Below, piece after piece: positions 38,503 to 46,040 of a DNA stretch of 64,000 nt. The notes below the pieces were generated by a model. The model was not told where the DNA came from. It did no database searches and was given only the letters and a program-made list of their open reading frames with translations. The stretch is taken from NCBI RefSeq assembly GCF_011516635.5, contig NZ_CP096255.1:6074501-6138500 (forward strand), written 5' to 3'. Each line of letters begins with the position of its first letter. The first letter of the stretch is position 1. The DNA is from Bradyrhizobium barranii subsp. apii. Its GTDB lineage: Bacteria; Pseudomonadota; Alphaproteobacteria; Rhizobiales; Xanthobacteraceae. Position numbers and translations under genes: made by a program.

Positions 38503-38666
38503 CGATTTCCTCCACGGCGGACGCTGCTTCGGATCAGTTAGCCCCGAAAAAGTGACGCATGCAATCGCGTCCCTCGCTTTTTGCGTGAACGTCCCGTGAC
38601 GTTCCGCTAACCTCGCACGAAAATCACAAGCATACGCCACGCAACGACGTGGCTGCGGAGGAGACC

Positions 38667-40297
38667 ATGCAGGGATTGATGATGGATATGCCGCTCCTGA
38701 TCAGCGGCCTGATCCAGTATGCCGCGGACTATCACGGCGAAGCCGAGATCGTCGCGCGCGAGATCGAGGGCGACATCCATCGCTACACCTACGCCGACGC
38801 CCATCCACGCATCAAGCGCATGGCGCTGGCTCTGAAGCGGCTCGGCATGAAGCAAGGCGACCGCGTCGGCACCCTGGCCTGGAATACGCACCGCCATTTC
38901 GAGATGTTCTATGCCGCGCCGGGCATGGGCTATGTGCTGCACACCATCAATCCGCGGCTGTTTCCCGAGCAGCTCGTCTACATCATCAACCACGCCGAAG
39001 ACCGGCTGCTGTTCATCGACCGCGCCACGCTGCCGCTGGTCGAGGCGATCGCGCCGCAGCTGAAGACGATCGAGGCCTATGTCGTGATGTCCTCGCGCGA
39101 GCGGATGCCGGAGACCAAGCTTGCGAACGTGCATTGCTATGAGGATCTCCTCGCCAGCGAGAACGACGCCGGTTTCGTCTGGCCGGAGTTCGACGAAAAA
39201 TCCGCATCGACCATCTGCTACACTTCAGGGACGACGGGCAATCCCAAGGGCGTGATCTACTCGCACCGCGCCGCCATCCTGCAGACCATGACTTGCTGCA
39301 ATTTCGACTTCCTGCCGGGACATCTCGAAGGCGTGCGCGAAGTCATGATGCCGATGGCACCACTCTTCCACGGCAACGGCTGGAACATGCCGTTCACCGC
39401 GCCTTACACGGGATCAAAGCTGGTGCTGCCCGGCCGCAACTATGAGCCCGACAAGCTCTATGAGCTGCTCAAGGCGAGAAGGTGACGCTCTCCGCAGGCG
39501 TGCCGAGCTTCTGGCTGATCCTGCTCGATTGGCTGGGTCGCACCGGCAATAAATTCTCGACCCTGCGCGCGACGCTGTCGTCCGGCTCGGCGCCGCCGCG
39601 CGCGATGGTCGAGAGGCTCAAGCGCGACTATGACATCGACTACATCCAGGCCTGGGGCATGACCGAAGCCCTGGGCTGCTCGATGCCGGGCTTGCGGCCC
39701 GGCTCCGAGCTCCTCGGCGACAAGGAGAAATTCGACCGGCGCCAGGTGTCTGGCCGCGCCTGCTTCGGCACAGCCTTGCGCATCGTCGACGACGGCGGCA
39801 ACGAGCTGCCGCGCGACGGCAAGACCGTCGGCCATTTGCGCGCCCGTGGCCCCTGGGTCGCCTCCGGCTATATGAAGCTCGACGAAGGTCTCGACCGTGA
39901 CGGCTGGCTGATCACCGGCGACATGGCCGTGATCGATCCACAGGGCCACGTCACGCTGACCGACCGATCCAAGGACGTGATCAAGTCCGGCGGCGAATGG
40001 ATCTCCTCGATCCAGCTCGAGGACGTCGCGTTGTCCCACCCCGACGTGCTGCAAGCCGCGGTGGTCGCGATCAACCATGAGAAATGGCAGGAGCGTCCGC
40101 TGCTCCTCGTCGTCCGCAAGAAGGGCGCGACCGTCGACGGCAAGACCTTGCTCGACCACATGCGCCCGAAGATCGCGAGCTGGTGGATGCCGGATGCGGT
40201 CGAATTCCTGGACGAATTTCCGATGACCGGCACCGGCACCGGCAAGGTGCTCAAATCCGCGCTGCGCGAGAAGTTCAGGGAGTACCGCGTCGCCTGA
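38667..40297 (+). pseudogene. acyl-CoA synthetase (AMP-forming), frameshifted
   Basis: The first frame (38667-39485) holds the N-terminal AMP-binding domain with the P-loop YTSGTTGNPKG and HGNGWNMP; the second (to 40297) holds the remainder with GMTEALG, the GDMA loop, TLTDRSKDVIKSGGEW and the C-terminal GTGTGKVLK. Reading switches at 39471-39480: LLKA is followed by RR and a stop, whereas one additional G gives AEKVTLSAGVPSFW. The restored length is 543 residues. GGAGGAG precedes the ATG at 38667, better than the GTG at 38649. A fatty or aromatic acid substrate cannot be told apart. Confidence 0.85.
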
Positions 40298-40390
40298 AGT
40301 ACGCGCGCCCTGCCGTGTGCGGTCTTCATCTTTTGGTAGATTCGACGGCGATATATCGAGGTGTCGCTAACTCCAGGGATCGAGGACAGC

Positions 40391-41509
40391 ATGGCGTTTT
40401 CCGGATTGGGCCTGCATCTCGGCAATCTGTCGCGCCTGTCGAATGCGCAGACGCGCTCGATCAGCCCCGAGAATTTCACCGGCGAGAAGGGCAAGGGCGG
40501 CATGTCCGTCGACGGACCCGCCGCACGCCAGGCTCGCGATCTCGGCCAGGGCTGGAAGATCTCGCCCTATGTCATCATCGAGCCCGGCGCTACCTTTACG
40601 CTCGGCGACATTCAGGGCCAGGGCGCGATCCAGCAGATCTGGATGACGCTGGCGCGCGGGCGCCTTCGTCACTCGATCCTGCGCGTCTACTGGGACGACC
40701 AAATGCTGCCAAGCGTGGAATGCCCGGCCGGCGATTTCTTCGCCTGCGGATGGGAGGAGTTCGCGCAGGTGTCCTCGCTCGCGGTCTGCGTCAATCCCGG
40801 CCGCGCGTTCAACTGCTACTGGGAAATGCCGTTCCGCACGCGCGCGCGCTTCACGCTGGAGAACCGCAGCGAGGAGCAGCTCACCGTCTACTACCAGATC
40901 AACTACACGCTCACTGAGGTGCCCGAGGACTGCGCCTATTTCCATGCGCAGTTCCGGCGTACCAATCCGCTGCCGTACAAGGAGGTCTACACCATCCTCG
41001 ATGGCGTAAGCGGTGCGGGCCATTATGTCGGCACCTATATGGCCTGGGGCGTCAACAACAATGGCTGGTGGGGCGAAGGCGAGATCAAGTTCTTCATCGA
41101 CGGCGACGGTGCATTCCCGACCATCTGCGGCACCGGCACCGAGGATTATTTCTGCGGCGCCTATAATTTCGATCCCTATGTCGCGCATGCCGGCCAGGGT
41201 CCGGCGCAACAATCCCGCTACCAGGAATTCACCACGCCCTATGCCGGCCTACCGCAGGTGATCCGTCCCGATGGCGTCTACAAGTCGCAGCAACGCTTCG
41301 GCCTGTACCGCTGGCACATCCCCGATCCCGTGCGCTTCCGCTCCGATCTGCGCGTGACGATCCAGGCGCTGGGCTGGCTGCCGGGCGTCAAGGAGGCGAA
41401 GTATCTTCCATTGCAGGACGACATCGCCTCGGTCGCGTTCTGGTACCAGACGCTGCCGACCCCGCCCTTCCCGACATTGCCCGGCCCGGATTATCTCGAA
41501 ATCGGCTAG
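40391..41509 (+). CDS. DUF2961 / GH172-like protein
   Basis: 372 residues. The region GTGTEDYF (Glu at about residue 251) with the surrounding FIDGDG and FCGAYNF matches the DUF2961 hallmark, a family now recognised as glycoside hydrolase GH172 (difructose dianhydride synthase and arabinofuranosidase activities). An earlier WEEF and RTRARFTLEN strand fits the jelly-roll repeat. There is no signal peptide, so it is probably cytosolic. It lies downstream of the acyl-CoA synthetase and is followed by a strong terminator. The substrate is unknown. Confidence 0.78.
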   Translation: MAFSGLGLHLGNLSRLSNAQTRSISPENFTGEKGKGGMSVDGPAARQARDLGQGWKISPYVIIEPGATFTLGDIQGQGAIQQIWMTLARGRLRHSILRVYWDDQMLPSVECPAGDFFACGWEEFAQVSSLAVCVNPGRAFNCYWEMPFRTRARFTLENRSEEQLTVYYQINYTLTEVPEDCAYFHAQFRRTNPLPYKEVYTILDGVSGAGHYVGTYMAWGVNNNGWWGEGEIKFFIDGDGAFPTICGTGTEDYFCGAYNFDPYVAHAGQGPAQQSRYQEFTTPYAGLPQVIRPDGVYKSQQRFGLYRWHIPDPVRFRSDLRVTIQALGWLPGVKEAKYLPLQDDIASVAFWYQTLPTPPFPTLPGPDYLEIG

Positions 41510-41536
41510 CCGCCCTTCCCTGCACTCACAGCATTT

Positions 41537-41574
41537 GCGCCGCCCGGACGTCGTGAAGATCGTCCGGGCGGCGC
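41537..41574. terminator. bidirectional intrinsic terminator-like hairpin
   Basis: GCGCCGCCCGGAC and GTCCGGGCGGCGC form a perfect 13-bp stem with a 12-base loop, between the converging DUF2961 gene and the short porin-motif gene. It can act on both strands; T runs are weak. Confidence 0.65.
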
Positions 41575-41592
41575 CTTCGTGTTCGGCGCCGG

Positions 41593-42126
41593 CTACCAGG
41601 AATACTGGAGCCCCACGCGTCCAAGGGCGCGCACGTCGCTCCACGACTGCGCCGGAAGCGCCACGCCAAACTCCGTCGCGGTCCGGTTGGACGTGGACGT
41701 CAAGCTGCCGCGATCGAGACCGAACGCGATGCCCATGGTCAGTGACAGGTTTCCCTGGATCCTGATCATTCCGACCACACCGGCGGCATGCTGCCCGTCG
41801 AAGACGGCCCAGTGCGTCGAGATCGCATAGTTGGTCCCGTCGGGCAGGAACGGATTGACGAGCGAAGTCGCCATGGCCGTTCCCGTCGCTGCACGGGTAA
41901 TCTGGCGTGCGAGATCGAACTGGCTCTGCACCGTCTGCCCCGCGTTCACGCAGGTGTCAGTACCCGGTATGTAGAAGAAGTTGGCACCGTAGACTGAGCA
42001 GATCTTTTCGTACTCGACCGCAGCATGGCCGGGCGTCGGGATCGCCAGAACCAGAGCGGCAGTCGCAAGGATAGCGCGCAGGTGACGTCGGAAGACGTCT
42101 CGTGCCGCGTTGATTTGCTTCCACAT
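41593..42126 (-). CDS. short outer-membrane protein: Porin_2-type motif plus YadA-like anchor, copy B2
   Basis: 177 residues. Signal peptide (about 1-35, ending GHAA), then YEKICSVYGANFFYIPGTDTC, the signature that opens bradyrhizobial Porin_2 proteins. Instead of a large barrel it continues with a helical QFDLARQITRAATGTAMA segment and four amphipathic strands ending RVGLQYSW, the layout of a YadA-type anchor. The ATG at 42126 has GGAGAC before it; an ATG at 42138 is also possible. It pairs with the Omp25-like gene directly upstream and has a paralogue at 42969. Confidence 0.72.
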   Translation of the reverse strand: MWKQINAARDVFRRHLRAILATAALVLAIPTPGHAAVEYEKICSVYGANFFYIPGTDTCVNAGQTVQSQFDLARQITRAATGTAMATSLVNPFLPDGTNYAISTHWAVFDGQHAAGVVGMIRIQGNLSLTMGIAFGLDRGSLTSTSNRTATEFGVALPAQSWSDVRALGRVGLQYSW

Positions 42127-42157
42127 GTTTGTCTCCAATCAGTGACGTTGGCGCGGC

Positions 42158-42916
42158 TCAGTAACGAGCAACGATGGCATCGCCGTTGAAGCGGTAGTTC
42201 ACGCCGAGCTTCACGAGATGAAGGTCATGGTCGACGTTCTGGGTGCTGATCCGTGTGCTCAGCGCGATCGCGGCCGGACCGAAATACAGGTAGTCGTACT
42301 CCAGTCGCGCCGAGAGATTGCTCGTCAGCGCGTATTCAAGGCCGACGCCGCCGGTCAAGCCGGTCCGCTGGTGGTTCACGTCGAGCGGACCAACCGTGCC
42401 GACATAGGCCTGGTAGGCGACATTTGCCCAGGCAACCCCGCCTTTGGCGTAAGCCAGTACGTTATCAAACGCGTAGCCGATGCGACCGGTGCCCGTCGCC
42501 AGTGCCTGGTACGACACTGAAAGCCCGGACAAGATGGGGTTCGCGGGATCGAACGGCCGATTGCCCTTGATCGACGCCCAGGAGAGATCGAGCTCGGCAC
42601 CGACCACGATGTTGTCGAACTGCCAGTTGCCGCCAACCTGCGCACCTGCGAGCGCGCCCTTTGTGTCCATCGTGAAGCGATCTTGCGCGAATGCGAAGCT
42701 CGGGTCGACGAGCCGGCTGCTGCCCATGCCATAACCGCCATGAGCACCAATGTAGAAGCCGTTCCAGAGCGGCACCGGAGCGACGACCGGAGCCTTCACG
42801 GTCATGTCGGCCGCGTTCGCGGATGTGGCGGTGAGCGGCATGGCCGCGAGAAGCGGCGTGACGGCAGCAACGCAGGAGAGGAAGCGGCGCGCCGATCGCG
42901 AGAGAGAGATTGTCAT
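42158..42916 (-). CDS. Omp25-like outer-membrane beta-barrel protein, copy A2
   Basis: 252 residues with a signal peptide (about 1-40, ending NAA) and an OMP_b-brl barrel: repeated aromatic-rich strands WNGFYIGAHGGYG, GAQVGGNWQFDNIVVGAELDLSW, GRIGYAFDNVLAYAKGG, SARLEYDYLYFG and a terminal strand VNYRFNGDAIVARY. It belongs to the Omp25/Omp31-like small porin-type barrel family. The ATG at 42916 was preferred to a TTG at 42931. It sits just upstream of copy B2 and downstream of copy B1 on the same strand. Confidence 0.83.
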   Translation of the reverse strand: MTISLSRSARRFLSCVAAVTPLLAAMPLTATSANAADMTVKAPVVAPVPLWNGFYIGAHGGYGMGSSRLVDPSFAFAQDRFTMDTKGALAGAQVGGNWQFDNIVVGAELDLSWASIKGNRPFDPANPILSGLSVSYQALATGTGRIGYAFDNVLAYAKGGVAWANVAYQAYVGTVGPLDVNHQRTGLTGGVGLEYALTSNLSARLEYDYLYFGPAAIALSTRISTQNVDHDLHLVKLGVNYRFNGDAIVARY

Positions 42917-42968
42917 GGGATGATCTTTCAAATGTCAGAATGAATCTTAGGAGCGAGCGTCGCGTGCA

Positions 42969-43478
42969 TCACCAGGCGTACATGAAGCCCGCGCGGCCGA
43001 GGCCACGGACGTCACTCCACGATTGCGCCGGGATCGCCGTGCCGAATTCCGTCTGCGTGCGGTTGGTGAGGGACGTGAGGCTTCCCTTGTCGAGGCCGAG
43101 CGAGAAGCCGCCCGAGAACACGAAATTGCCGGAGACCCGCACGAGCCCTGAGAAGCCCGCTGCGTGCTGGCCGTCATAGGTCGCCCAGTGGGTCGAGACC
43201 GCGTAATTGGTGCCGGTCGGAAGCCACGGCGCGACGAGCGACGCGGCCATCGCGGTGCCGGTCGAAGCGCGGGTCTGCGCACGCGCGAGATCGAACTGGT
43301 TCGTCGCGATCTGGTTGGCGTTGGTGCAGGTGTCGGTGCCCGGAATGTAGAAGAAGCCGGCGCCGTACAAGGAGCAGACCTTGACGTACTCGACTGGAGC
43401 GGCGGCGTGGCTTGGTGCGGCGATCATGGCGCCGAGGCCGGCGGTGACGACTGCGGCGATCTTGGACATGGTGGACAT
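42969..43478 (-). CDS. short outer-membrane protein: Porin_2-type motif plus YadA-like anchor, copy B1
   Basis: 169 residues, clearly paralogous to the gene at 41593 along its whole length (YVKVCSLYGAGFFYIPGTDTC, GTNYAVSTHWATYDGQHAAG, RTQTEFGTAIPAQSWSDVRGLGRAG). Signal peptide about 1-26. GGAGAC precedes the ATG exactly as in the paralogue. The end RAGFMYAW is the final barrel strand. The fusion of a porin N-terminal signature to a trimeric-autotransporter-like anchor, with no passenger between, is unusual. Confidence 0.73.
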   Translation of the reverse strand: MSTMSKIAAVVTAGLGAMIAAPSHAAAPVEYVKVCSLYGAGFFYIPGTDTCTNANQIATNQFDLARAQTRASTGTAMAASLVAPWLPTGTNYAVSTHWATYDGQHAAGFSGLVRVSGNFVFSGGFSLGLDKGSLTSLTNRTQTEFGTAIPAQSWSDVRGLGRAGFMYAW

Positions 43479-43529
43479 GATGTTGTCTCCGAGGATTTCT
43501 GTTGAATGTTGTTTCGATGTGCCGGGGAA

Positions 43530-44270
43530 TTAACGCGGGAGGCCGCCGTCGCCGTTGAAACGGACGTTGATGCCGGCCTTCACCACCTGGACGAAATGCT
43601 TGATCTCGGAGGTCGTGTCCTGGCTCACCCAATGCAGCGTTTCGGTGGGGAGAAAGATCGCGTTGTATTCGACCTTGGCGGAGACGTTGCGCAGGAAGGC
43701 CACTTCCAGGCCGACGCCGCCGACGGCACCGAACAGCTCGCGGTTGTAGTTGGTGATCTCCGGGGTGAACCGCGACGAAAGCACCATGCGGGCATAGGCG
43801 GCACCGCCCTTGGCATAGGCGAGCCATTGGCCCGATGCGTAGCCGACACGGCCCGTCGCGGTCGCGAGGGCGGTGTAGCCGACCCCGTTGGTGGTGCTCG
43901 ACGTGAGAAGGGGCGAGGTGCTGGTGTTGCCCTTCACGAAGGACCAGGAGCCGTCGACCTCGGCACCAAGGACATAGTTGCCCAGCTGCCAATTGTAGCC
44001 GAGCTGCCCGCCCGCGAGCGGTCCGTTGTAGTAGGCAAAGAACGGATTGTTGGCGGGGCTGTTGAGGGGATCGCGAAACTCCGACTTCCCCCATCCCCAG
44101 CCGCCATGGACACCGGCGTAGAATCCAGACCAGGAGACGACGGGTGCAGGCAGCGGACCGCCGGCGAAAGCAGGTGAAGTGATAATCGCGCTCACCGCTG
44201 CAACGGCGGCGGCGAGTCTGATGCGGTGAGTGACGGAGCGTTCTGATTGCGTGTGCATGTCGATGTCCAT
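43530..44270 (-). CDS. Omp25-like outer-membrane beta-barrel protein, copy A1
   Basis: About 246 residues. Signal peptide (ending AFAGG) then barrel strands WSGFYAGVHGGWGWG, LAGGQLGYNWQLGNYVLGAEVDGSW, GRVGYASGQWLAYAKGGAAYA, SAKVEYNAIFLPTETLHW and a terminal INVRFNGDGGLPR. Paralogous to copy A2. AAGGA lies directly before the ATG at 44270, and ATGs at 44258 or a TTG at 44288 are alternatives. It heads the four-gene outer-membrane run after a gap of more than 500 bases. Confidence 0.82.
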   Translation of the reverse strand: MDIDMHTQSERSVTHRIRLAAAVAAVSAIITSPAFAGGPLPAPVVSWSGFYAGVHGGWGWGKSEFRDPLNSPANNPFFAYYNGPLAGGQLGYNWQLGNYVLGAEVDGSWSFVKGNTSTSPLLTSSTTNGVGYTALATATGRVGYASGQWLAYAKGGAAYARMVLSSRFTPEITNYNRELFGAVGGVGLEVAFLRNVSAKVEYNAIFLPTETLHWVSQDTTSEIKHFVQVVKAGINVRFNGDGGLPR

Positions 44271-44828
44271 TTCCTTTTTCGAATTCAAGAGTGTGTTTCT
44301 TTATATTTATCTATTTTAGATTGCGCCTTGAGATGCAACGTTTGGATCAAGCCCTTGCTTGCTTTTGAACGAACGAAACCGGCGACCGCGCAGCTTGCGG
44401 ATCGACGGGACGAACTATCGGTTGTTGGAAGAACCCGCGCGCAGTCTAGGACAATGCGCTCCGCGTCCTATCGACTGGCGAACTAGGGGCGCGCGATCCG
44501 TAAGGAAGTGCTTCCGTAGTCCCCTTGTGTTGTCATGACTGCTGCCCCCACTTTTGATTGAGGCCGATCTTAGGCACGACCTTTCGGATTGCCAGTCGCG
44601 TCAAAGTCACAGTTGCTGATTGTTTCCCACGCGCTTCTCATTCGGTGCACAAACGCAAGACAACGCATGAATGGACGTTAATATCGCTACGCAACAGGTG
44701 AGCTCTGACGCGATTTGCGCAGAGCCGCGCCGATGAAAATGCGATGAGGCAAGCGCCGCTATCGCCGACTCGATTCTGATGCAGGCCGGCCCCGCGTGCA
44801 GGCGCTGCTTGATCTACAGGAGGTCCAG
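44271..44828. promoter_or_regulatory. long divergent upstream region
   Basis: No supported gene in about 560 bases between the outer-membrane cassette and the acyl-CoA dehydrogenase. It includes an AT-rich tract close to the outer-membrane start (44290-44325), a small palindrome GGAAG-tg-CTTCC at 44504-44515, and AGGAGG (44818-44823) that serves the dehydrogenase. It probably holds both promoters and regulatory sites. Confidence 0.4.
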
Positions 44829-46040
44829 ATGCTCTACCCGATGTCGCCCAAAGTCGTCGAGCTCAAGCGCAAGCTCGAAAGTTTCATGGACCGGCACATC
44901 TATCCGAACGAGGAGCGCTTCTATCGCGAAGCGGAAGAGCTCGGACCGTGGAAGGTCTATCCCGTCGTCGAGGAGCTGAAGCCGCTGGCGCGCGCCGAAG
45001 GTCTCTGGAATTTGTTCCTGCCGGAGTCCGGCCACGGCGCTGGTCTCACCAATCTCGAATATGCCCCGCTCTGCGAGGTGATGGGGCGCACGCATCTGGC
45101 ACCCGAAGTGTTCAACTGCTCGGCGCCCGACACCGGCAACATGGAGGTGCTGGAGCGCTATGGCACGGAGAAGGACAAGGAGCGCTGGTTGAAGCCGCTG
45201 CTCGCCGGCGAAATCCGCTCCTGCTTCGCCATGACCGAGCCCGCGGTCGCATCATCCGATGCGACGAACATCGAAAGCTCGATCGTGCGCGATGGCGACC
45301 ATTACGTCATCAACGGGCGGAAATGGTACACGACCAACGCGACCGACCCGCGCTGCAAGATCTGCATCTTCATGGGCAAGACCGATCCGGACAATCCCGA
45401 CCGCCACAAGCAGCAATCCATGATCCTGGTGCCGATGGACACGCCGGGCATCGAGGTCAAGCGTCCGCTGCCCGTGTTCGGTTTCTACGGCGTGCCCGAC
45501 CGCGCTTCCGAGGTCGTCTTCACCAATGTGCGCGTGCCCAAGGAGAACATGCTGCTGGGCGAAGGCCGTGGCTTCGAGATCGCACAAGGCCGCCTCGGCC
45601 CCGGCCGCATCCATCACTGCATGCGGCTGATCGGCCTTGCCGAGCGTACGCTGGAAAAGATGTGCCGCCGCGTGCGCAGCCGCGTCGCCTTCGGCAAGCC
45701 GGTCTCGGAGCAGACCGTGACGCAGGAGCGAATCGCGGAAGCCCGCATCATGATCGAGCAGGCCCGGCTGCTGACACTCAACGCCGCCTACGCGATGGAC
45801 ACGGTCGGCAACAAGGTCGCGAAGGCCGAGATCGCGATGATCAAGGTCGCCGTGCCCAACATGGCCTGCCAGATCATCGACTGGGCCATCCAGGCGCACG
45901 GCGGCGGCGGCACCTCGAACGATTTTGGCTTGACCCAGGCCTACGCGACCGCGCGCCTGCTGCGGCTTGCCGATGGGCCGGATGAGGTGCACCGAAACCA
46001 GATCGCGCGATTCGAGCTGAAGAAATACTCGAATGACTGA
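44829..46040 (+). CDS. acyl-CoA dehydrogenase
   Basis: 403 residues. Family segments: [16 protein letters not shown] (flavin site, about 135), [21 protein letters not shown], the subunit-interface helix and [34 protein letters not shown] at the C-terminus. AGGAGG sits five bases before the ATG at 44829, which beats upstream ATGs of the same frame. It introduces a double bond next to the CoA thioester using FAD and ETF. Chain-length preference cannot be read. Confidence 0.9.

What the first reader, a model, noticed from the sequence alone, without database searches (positions are those of the whole stretch)
41593..44270. Duplicated outer-membrane cassette: Omp25-like barrel plus short porin-motif protein with YadA-like anchor
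The order A1-B1-A2-B2 repeats on the minus strand. B proteins carry the Porin_2 opening signature with two cysteines but then a short helical stretch and four strands like a trimeric autotransporter anchor, with no passenger or large barrel. The shared GGAGAC start sites support unit duplication. Such a pair could make a mixed outer-membrane assembly not yet described. The domain reading is mine; no structure has been seen.
Basis: partly seen in the sequence, partly recalled or inferred. Interest (0 to 1): 0.6.

Follow-up and report, generated by a model that had tools for sequence, protein, structure and literature searches.

The report
Miniature trimeric autotransporters with porin caps
A Bradyrhizobium-type operon carries two small outer-membrane proteins that look like the membrane anchor of a trimeric adhesin with its long passenger replaced by a tiny porin-type cap, each next to an OmpA/Omp25-like barrel protein; this is a stripped-down variant of a known secretion family rather than a wholly new machine.

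Summary
A1-B1-A2-B2 (41593-44270, minus strand) form one tight gene run. A1 and A2 are OmpA/Omp25-like barrels. B1 and B2 are hybrids: 23 residues of the Porin_2 opening with two cysteines (B1 21/23 identical to the genome's own porins), then a trimeric-autotransporter (TAA, type Vc) anchor. Evidence: a profile of the B C-terminal part finds the C-termini of long YadA-head TAAs; 6 of 7 short relatives scanned pass Pfam cut-offs for both Porin_2 and YadA_anchor; the B1 model has one helix plus four strands, and its five best PDB matches are Hia, AtaA and YadA anchors. The window proteins themselves miss the YadA_anchor cut-off. Full-length B was found in 14 genomes, always two copies (one split in one genome), 13 in A-B-A-B order; dN/dS is near 0.2. 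Unit duplication is supported by the A tree, not by the GGAGAC sites. A is not obligatory: B-type proteins stand without detected A in other loci. Best reading: a miniature TAA whose passenger is a porin-type cap. Trimerisation, cap side and A-B contact are untested. New variant of a known kind.

The parts
43530..44270 (-). A1: OmpA/Omp25-like outer-membrane barrel (ORF from 44288; ATG at 44270)
   Evidence: OMP_b-brl 44.8 bits; one clan with A2, 100/99; no Ala-Asp after the signal-peptide-like stretch (sequence); A1 was not modelled
42969..43478 (-). B1: signal-peptide-like stretch, porin-type cap with Cys 7 and 23 (numbered from VEY), one helix (26-52), four strands (TAA-type anchor)
   Evidence: Porin_2 51.8 bits, YadA_anchor 13.8 bits below cut-off; model pLDDT 74; top five PDB matches are TAA anchors
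43326..43394 (-). B1 porin-type cap, 23 residues from VEY to the second Cys
   Evidence: 21 of 23 identical to own porins L001 and L002; exactly two Cys, 16 apart, in 20 of 20 rows of A4
42972..43319 (-). B1 helix plus four-strand anchor (residues 26-141), with a long beta3-beta4 loop (residues 105-125)
42158..42916 (-). A2: OmpA/Omp25-like 8-stranded barrel with Ala-Asp just after the signal-peptide-like stretch (ORF from 42931; ATG at 42916)
   Evidence: OMP_b-brl 57.2 bits; eight strands of 17-19 residues, pLDDT 75; Ala-Asp in 10 of 10 aligned rows
41593..42126 (-). B2: second cap-plus-anchor protein (ORF from TTG 42138; ATG at 42126)
   Evidence: Porin_2 49.3 bits; 63% identical to B1; not modelled
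41537..41574 (-). strong G+C-rich hairpin just after B2; possible end of the transcript, but without a T run
   Evidence: fold of 41481-41600, minus strand; the terminator scan found none there

Best explanation
B1 and B2 are miniature trimeric autotransporters. Each chain has a signal peptide, a 23-residue porin-type cap closed by one likely disulfide, a 27-residue helix and a four-stranded outer-membrane anchor ending in Trp. Three chains would build a 12-stranded barrel with three helices filling the pore, so that the caps, with three long beta3-beta4 loops, sit at the cell surface in place of the long adhesin rod. The gene most likely arose by joining the 5' end of a porin gene to the 3' end of a TAA gene. 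In this Bradyrhizobium group it travels with an OmpA/Omp25-like barrel gene and the pair was duplicated; A2 carries the Ala-Asp start used in this order to tether such barrels to peptidoglycan, so A2 may anchor or brace the B trimers. Shown: architecture, sequence kinship, conservation, monomer fold class. Inferred: fusion event, trimer, disulfide, surface location of the cap, a role as short surface structure or adhesin, A-B contact.
For: Cap: Porin_2 51.8 and 49.3 bits; 21/23 (B1) and 19/23 (B2) identical to own porins. Anchor: a profile of the B part after the cap hits 21 of 21 long ORFs fetched as L051-L071 near their C-terminus at 42-51 bits; the three of these scanned carry 8, 12 and 15 YadA_head stretches. 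Seven short relatives scanned: 7 of 7 over the Porin_2 cut-off, 6 of 7 over the YadA_anchor cut-off. PDB sequence search with the 14-row alignment A5: best hit YadA anchor 2lme, E 0.008; with L089 alone E 5e-4. Model of B1: helix 26-52, strands 64-73, 76-88, 91-104, 126-139; Foldseek ranks 1-5 are TAA anchors; VIA-align Z 8.9-10.7 for these five, next row 5.9. Selection: median dN/dS 0.20 (B1) and 0.16 (B2), 28 of 28 pairs each among eight genomes. A2 Ala-Asp in 10 of 10 rows; tether motif from passages of PMC12729407.
Against: Window B1 stays below the Pfam YadA_anchor cut-off and B2 has no match (16.3 bits for B1 in the genome search, no place in the genome over the cut-off); but two of three long TAAs with YadA_head repeats also show no YadA_anchor match. 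B1 alone finds nothing in the PDB by sequence. NCBIfam gives only a weak BimA match for B2 (12 bits, E 0.07, far below its cut-off) and none for B1. Trimerisation could not be modelled. The cap part of the model is poor (pLDDT 49-65) and pTM is 0.55. In a relative of these porins the N-terminus ahead of the cap is wall-attached, which argues for a periplasmic cap there. No stalk beyond one helix; no [YR]xD stalk motif in residues 25-90 of 20 of 20 B rows. In-out alternation of hydrophobic residues is clear in strands 2 and 3 only, weak in 1 and 4.
Confidence: 0.72

Rival explanations
1. Inverted topology: B has a TAA-type barrel, but the disulfide-closed porin cap stays in the periplasm, as it probably does in porins, and the helix hangs below the membrane or only plugs it; B would be a non-transporting anchor.
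For: The cap is nearly identical to that of own porins; a porin of this kind, Omp2b, is peptidoglycan-attached, and N-terminal Ala-Asp motifs do this in the order (passages of PMC12729407; that Omp2b is a Porin_2 protein is recalled). A disulfide is described as stopping passage through an outer-membrane transport pore in two-partner secretion (PMC3297439 passages). B has no stalk beyond one helix.
Against: In four of the five TAA-anchor alignments the matched part of the model starts at residue 3-13 and covers 95-103 residues, against 75 for the shortest Hia piece, which suggests that the helix lies as in the pore of TAAs. The GxAMA stretch of the helix is shared with the long TAAs L051-L053 and L065. 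L089 has 42 more residues between cap and anchor, as expected for an outward rod. B lacks the Ala-Asp leader that precedes the cap in own porins.
Confidence: 0.17
2. Mixed outer-membrane assembly: A and B chains combine in one complex.
For: A-B-A-B in 13 of 14 genomes; cassette A proteins form their own clan. A periplasmic peptidoglycan-binding partner of a TAA anchor is known (TpgA with AtaA, PMC13082670 abstract and passages).
Against: A2 is modelled as a complete 8-stranded barrel by itself. B-type proteins occur without detected A in six other loci. No contact evidence.
Confidence: 0.2
3. B is a truncated or decaying porin or autotransporter.
For: Short length; a truncated porin ORF with the same opening exists elsewhere (L026, 183 aa). 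One same-species genome (G450) has B2 split by a frameshift.
Against: Constant 141 residues from VEY to the end in 20 of 20 rows and dN/dS near 0.2; the truncated porin L026 keeps the Ala-Asp leader and first porin strand, which B lacks; the C-terminal part matches TAA anchors.
Confidence: 0.04

Closest known systems
Type Vc trimeric autotransporters (YadA, Hia, AtaA)
   Same: C-terminal anchor: helix, four strands, terminal aromatic residue; sequence profile and fold match
   Different: No long passenger; a 23-residue porin-type cap instead; a beta3-beta4 loop about 25 residues longer than in L084, L085, L089 and one L108 protein (the other L108 protein shares it); encoded in tandem pairs with barrel genes
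Porin_2 (rhizobial and Brucella-type porins)
   Same: N-terminal 23 residues with the two cysteines
   Different: No Ala-Asp leader, no porin barrel; only positions 8-53 of 357 of the profile match
OmpA/Omp25-like small barrels (A1, A2)
   Same: OMP_b-brl match; eight strands in the A2 model; Ala-Asp start in A2
   Different: A separate clan from 24 other such proteins of the genome; A1 lacks the Ala-Asp start
AtaA-TpgA (TAA anchor with a periplasmic, peptidoglycan-binding partner)
   Same: Idea of a TAA anchor braced by a second envelope protein (PMC13082670 abstract and passages)
   Different: A proteins are predicted membrane barrels, not periplasmic TpgA-type proteins; contact with B is unproven

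Membership tests
Type Vc trimeric autotransporter | C-terminal membrane anchor of helix plus four strands (called the domain that defines the family in PMC3297439, type Vc section) | tested here: met
   Model of B1 and PDB matches; profile hits to C-termini of YadA-head proteins
Type Vc trimeric autotransporter | Homotrimer forming a 12-stranded barrel | not testable with these tools
   Only single chains can be modelled
Type Vc trimeric autotransporter | Pfam YadA_anchor over the cut-off | tested here: inconclusive
   Window B1 13.8 bits against 22.7, B2 none: not reached. 6 of 7 short relatives reach it; 2 of 3 long TAAs with YadA_head repeats show no match either
Type Vc trimeric autotransporter | Long passenger with head and coiled-coil stalk (typical, not defining) | tested here: not met
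   141 residues: cap, one helix, anchor
Type Vc trimeric autotransporter | C-terminal aromatic residue for Bam recognition | tested here: met
   Trp last in 20 of 20 rows of A4 (sequences listed) and 14 of 14 rows of A5
Type Vc trimeric autotransporter | Sec signal peptide | tested here: inconclusive
   Hydrophobic stretch and AXA-like site visible in the sequence; no predictor was run
Porin_2 | N-terminal opening motif | tested here: met
Porin_2 | Full porin barrel | tested here: not met
   Only positions 8-53 of 357 match; the rest matches TAA anchors
OmpA/Omp25-like barrel (A1, A2) | OMP_b-brl domain, eight strands | tested here: met
   44.8 and 57.2 bits; eight strands in the A2 model; A1 was not modelled
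Peptidoglycan-tethered barrels of Hyphomicrobiales | N-terminal Ala-Asp motif | tested here: met
   A2 only: 10 of 10 rows. A1 and B do not show it. Attachment itself untested

The most novel reading that the evidence does not exclude
B1 and B2 represent a separate class of capped mini-autotransporters in which a porin N-terminal module was transplanted onto a TAA anchor; the conserved B1/B2 pairs build hetero-trimers, and the disulfide-closed caps stay on the periplasmic side next to peptidoglycan-tethered A2, turning a secretion pore into an envelope brace instead of an exporter.
Probability: 0.12. Interest if true: 0.75.

Novelty: new variant of a known kind. Interest (0 to 1): 0.5.

Why it matters
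It would show how small a trimeric autotransporter can become and that a porin N-terminal module can be moved onto an unrelated barrel. A natural 141-residue example with a cysteine pair at the tip gives a compact test object for open questions of type Vc biogenesis: which side the N-terminus ends on, whether a closed disulfide can pass the pore, and whether paralogous anchors form mixed trimers.

Tried and rejected
GGAGAC as evidence of unit duplication: only the two B genes have it, and the count in the window is not above chance. Sigma-70-like promoter and T-run terminator scans: 2 and 1 sites, within or near the shuffled expectation, none placed to help. A partner of B in other lineages: no A relative by BLAST with A1 and A2 at E 1e-3 among ORFs of 80 codons or more in L108 and L133-L138 (L138 is only 6 kb and ends inside a second B start); neighbouring ORFs were only looked at by eye, not scanned. 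Same cap on long TAAs: 0 of 43 ORFs with at least three YadA-head-like repeats, by a regular expression. Solved structure of a Porin_2 porin to place the cap: the one own porin searched found none. Trees: B1 and B2 labels are not each one clade, because the two B of L079 group together (96/97), so the age of the duplication, or gene conversion, stays open; the same script looked for the cap in L138 with a pattern and found none, so L138 is not in that tree. Foldseek rows other than the five TAA anchors had E of 0.086 or more and were not followed (50 of 465 rows shown). VIA-align rows at Z below 6 were treated as common arrangements. Counts are lower bounds, because at most 10-11 first-look candidates a genome were scored. 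Plasmid searches with B1 and with an L085 protein gave porin-type openings, and YadA-like proteins in two Sulfitobacter records, among the rows listed; no record covers 80% of the B1 query, and 3 records cover 80% of the L085 query at 28-33% identity, not followed. Papers: no paper held has Porin_2 together with trimeric autotransporter, with YadA_anchor, or with YadA and Bradyrhizobium; in the listings and the passages read of PMC7688925, PMC4070871 and PMC3297439 I saw no such short porin-capped protein. Only this open-access library was searched, and listings do not prove absence.

Full report
The window and its surroundings. The window lies in a 10.58 Mb genome in 3 contigs, G000:C1:6074501-6138500. 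Of nine named records with a close B relative, eight are titled Bradyrhizobium and one Xanthobacteraceae (L079); genes on both sides of the cassette are shared with several of them. So this is a Bradyrhizobium-type genome. The four genes A1, B1, A2, B2 lie head to tail on the minus strand with gaps of 51, 52 and 31 bases between stop and likely ATG (coordinates). They are flanked by plus-strand genes that I read as DUF2961-type at 40361-41509 and acyl-CoA-dehydrogenase-like at 44796-46040 (my labels, recalled, no scan run).

What A is. A1 and A2 match the small outer-membrane barrel family OMP_b-brl at 44.8 and 57.2 bits (cut-off 28.7). A2 modelled from 10 sequences has eight strands of 17-19 residues (pLDDT 75). 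This genome has 34 matches to the family, A1 and A2 included. Of the 32 others, 24 entered a tree (dropped: L169 without an in-frame ORF, four with ORFs of 340 codons or more, three without a locus). There the nine cassette A proteins used (A1, A2 and seven from L075, L076, L077, L079) form one clan with support 100/99, which fits duplication of an A-B unit. A2 has Ala-Asp right after its signal-peptide-like stretch in 10 of 10 rows. A review says that members of this order anchor outer-membrane proteins to peptidoglycan through N-terminal alanyl-aspartyl motifs, with Omp25 and Omp2b as the cases in Brucella abortus (PMC12729407, passages). A1 lacks the motif.

What B is. From the VEY of the cap to the end, B has 141 residues in 20 of 20 rows, with exactly two cysteines, at 7 and 23. 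The first 23 residues are the Porin_2 opening: 21 of 23 (B1) and 19 of 23 (B2) identical to the genome's two full porins. Those porins have an Ala-Asp leader before it and a first barrel strand after it; B has neither. The Porin_2 profile matches only at positions 8-53 of 357.

The remaining 118 residues. A profile made from 12 B sequences without the cap was searched in 391 genomes of the family: 54 have a match at E 1e-3 or better, 9 of them with B itself. Nearly all other matches lie in long open frames (about 400-1150 codons). In the 21 long ORFs fetched as L051-L071 the best match lies near the C-terminus in all 21 (42-51 bits). Three of these were scanned with Pfam: all carry YadA_head stretches (8, 12 and 15), and one reaches the YadA_anchor cut-off while two show no YadA_anchor match. 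So a YadA-type adhesin in this group can miss the Pfam anchor model, as B does.

Short relatives. Searches in the family, order and class found short proteins with the same cap and an anchor-like C-terminus: L084 (two), L085 (two), L089, L092, L094, L108 (two), of 117-175 residues from the cap on, and one from outside the order (L138), whose cap I read from the DNA. I scanned seven of these: 7 of 7 exceed the Porin_2 cut-off and 6 of 7 the YadA_anchor cut-off. L089 has 42 more residues between cap and anchor. Within their own families these are rare: 4 of 28 genomes in the family of G855, three of them with two adjacent genes, and 2 of 15 in the family of G548, both single. In the class sample only G1180 (L138) besides the window's genome gave a B-type match among 385 genomes (a lower bound).

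Fold. The B1 model (20 sequences, pLDDT 74, pTM 0.55) has helix 26-52 and strands 64-73, 76-88, 91-104 and 126-139, with a poor cap and poor beta3-beta4 loop. Foldseek against the PDB ranks Hia 3emo, AtaA 9vnj, Hia 2gr7, Hia 2gr8 and the YadA anchor 2lme first to fifth, E 7e-4 to 0.02. VIA-align gives Z 8.9 to 10.7 over 75-103 residues for these five, and 5.9 for the next row. Sequence search with the 14-row alignment A5 also puts 2lme first (E 0.008), and L089 alone gives it E 5e-4. B1 alone finds nothing.

Conservation. Full-length B occurs in 7 of 146 genus genomes and 9 of 391 family genomes, 14 different genomes in all, each with two copies. Thirteen of the 14 show A-B-A-B; the exception, G255, has two adjacent, more divergent B and no detected A within its 14 kb contig. 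In the same-species genome G450 B2 is split by a frameshift, either an assembly error or a loss. Median dN/dS is 0.20 for B1 and 0.16 for B2 over 28 of 28 pairs each among eight genomes, L079 and L080 left out. Fifteen of 141 positions are disjoint between nine B1 and nine B2 sequences, L079 left out, which suggests different jobs or fixed partner contacts. In the tree the L079 pair groups together (96/97), so the labels are not two clean clades.

Mechanism. By established type Vc knowledge (PMC3297439, type Vc section read whole), three chains give four strands each, a part of the chain occludes the pore, pore-facing residues are small, and different chains sharing an anchor can form mixed trimers. 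B has the helix, the four strands and the terminal Trp. I therefore infer a trimer that displays three porin-type caps and three long loops at the surface. Because the same cap in porins probably sits close to a wall-tethered N-terminus, a periplasmic cap is the main rival. A2 could brace the assembly to the wall, as TpgA does for AtaA (PMC13082670, abstract and passages), but no contact was tested.

Verdict. What it called a possibly undescribed mixed assembly is best described as a miniature, porin-capped trimeric autotransporter with an accompanying barrel gene in one clade: a new variant of a known kind.

Noticed in passing
window 38649-40297: Two overlapping plus-strand ORFs (278 and 271 aa) match one uninterrupted ORF in other Bradyrhizobium loci, so this gene, which I read as a CoA ligase (recalled label), appears split by a frameshift in the window.
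   Followed up: no
L110 5541-6085: In the same-species genome G450 the B2 gene is split into two frames while B1, A1 and A2 are open.
   Followed up: partly
L026 1390-1941: A short ORF with the porin opening, leader and first strand but no anchor: looks like a truncated porin, useful as a contrast to B.
   Followed up: partly
whole genome G000: 34 matches to the small barrel family OMP_b-brl in one genome, but only two full-length Porin_2 matches.
   Followed up: no
L138 5780-5988: Outside the order, a B-type gene is followed at the contig end by the start of a second one with the same opening, so tandem pairing seems to recur there.
   Followed up: partly
L083: The long autotransporter-like ORF contains two successive blocks of YadA-head-like repeats separated by a linker.
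   Followed up: no
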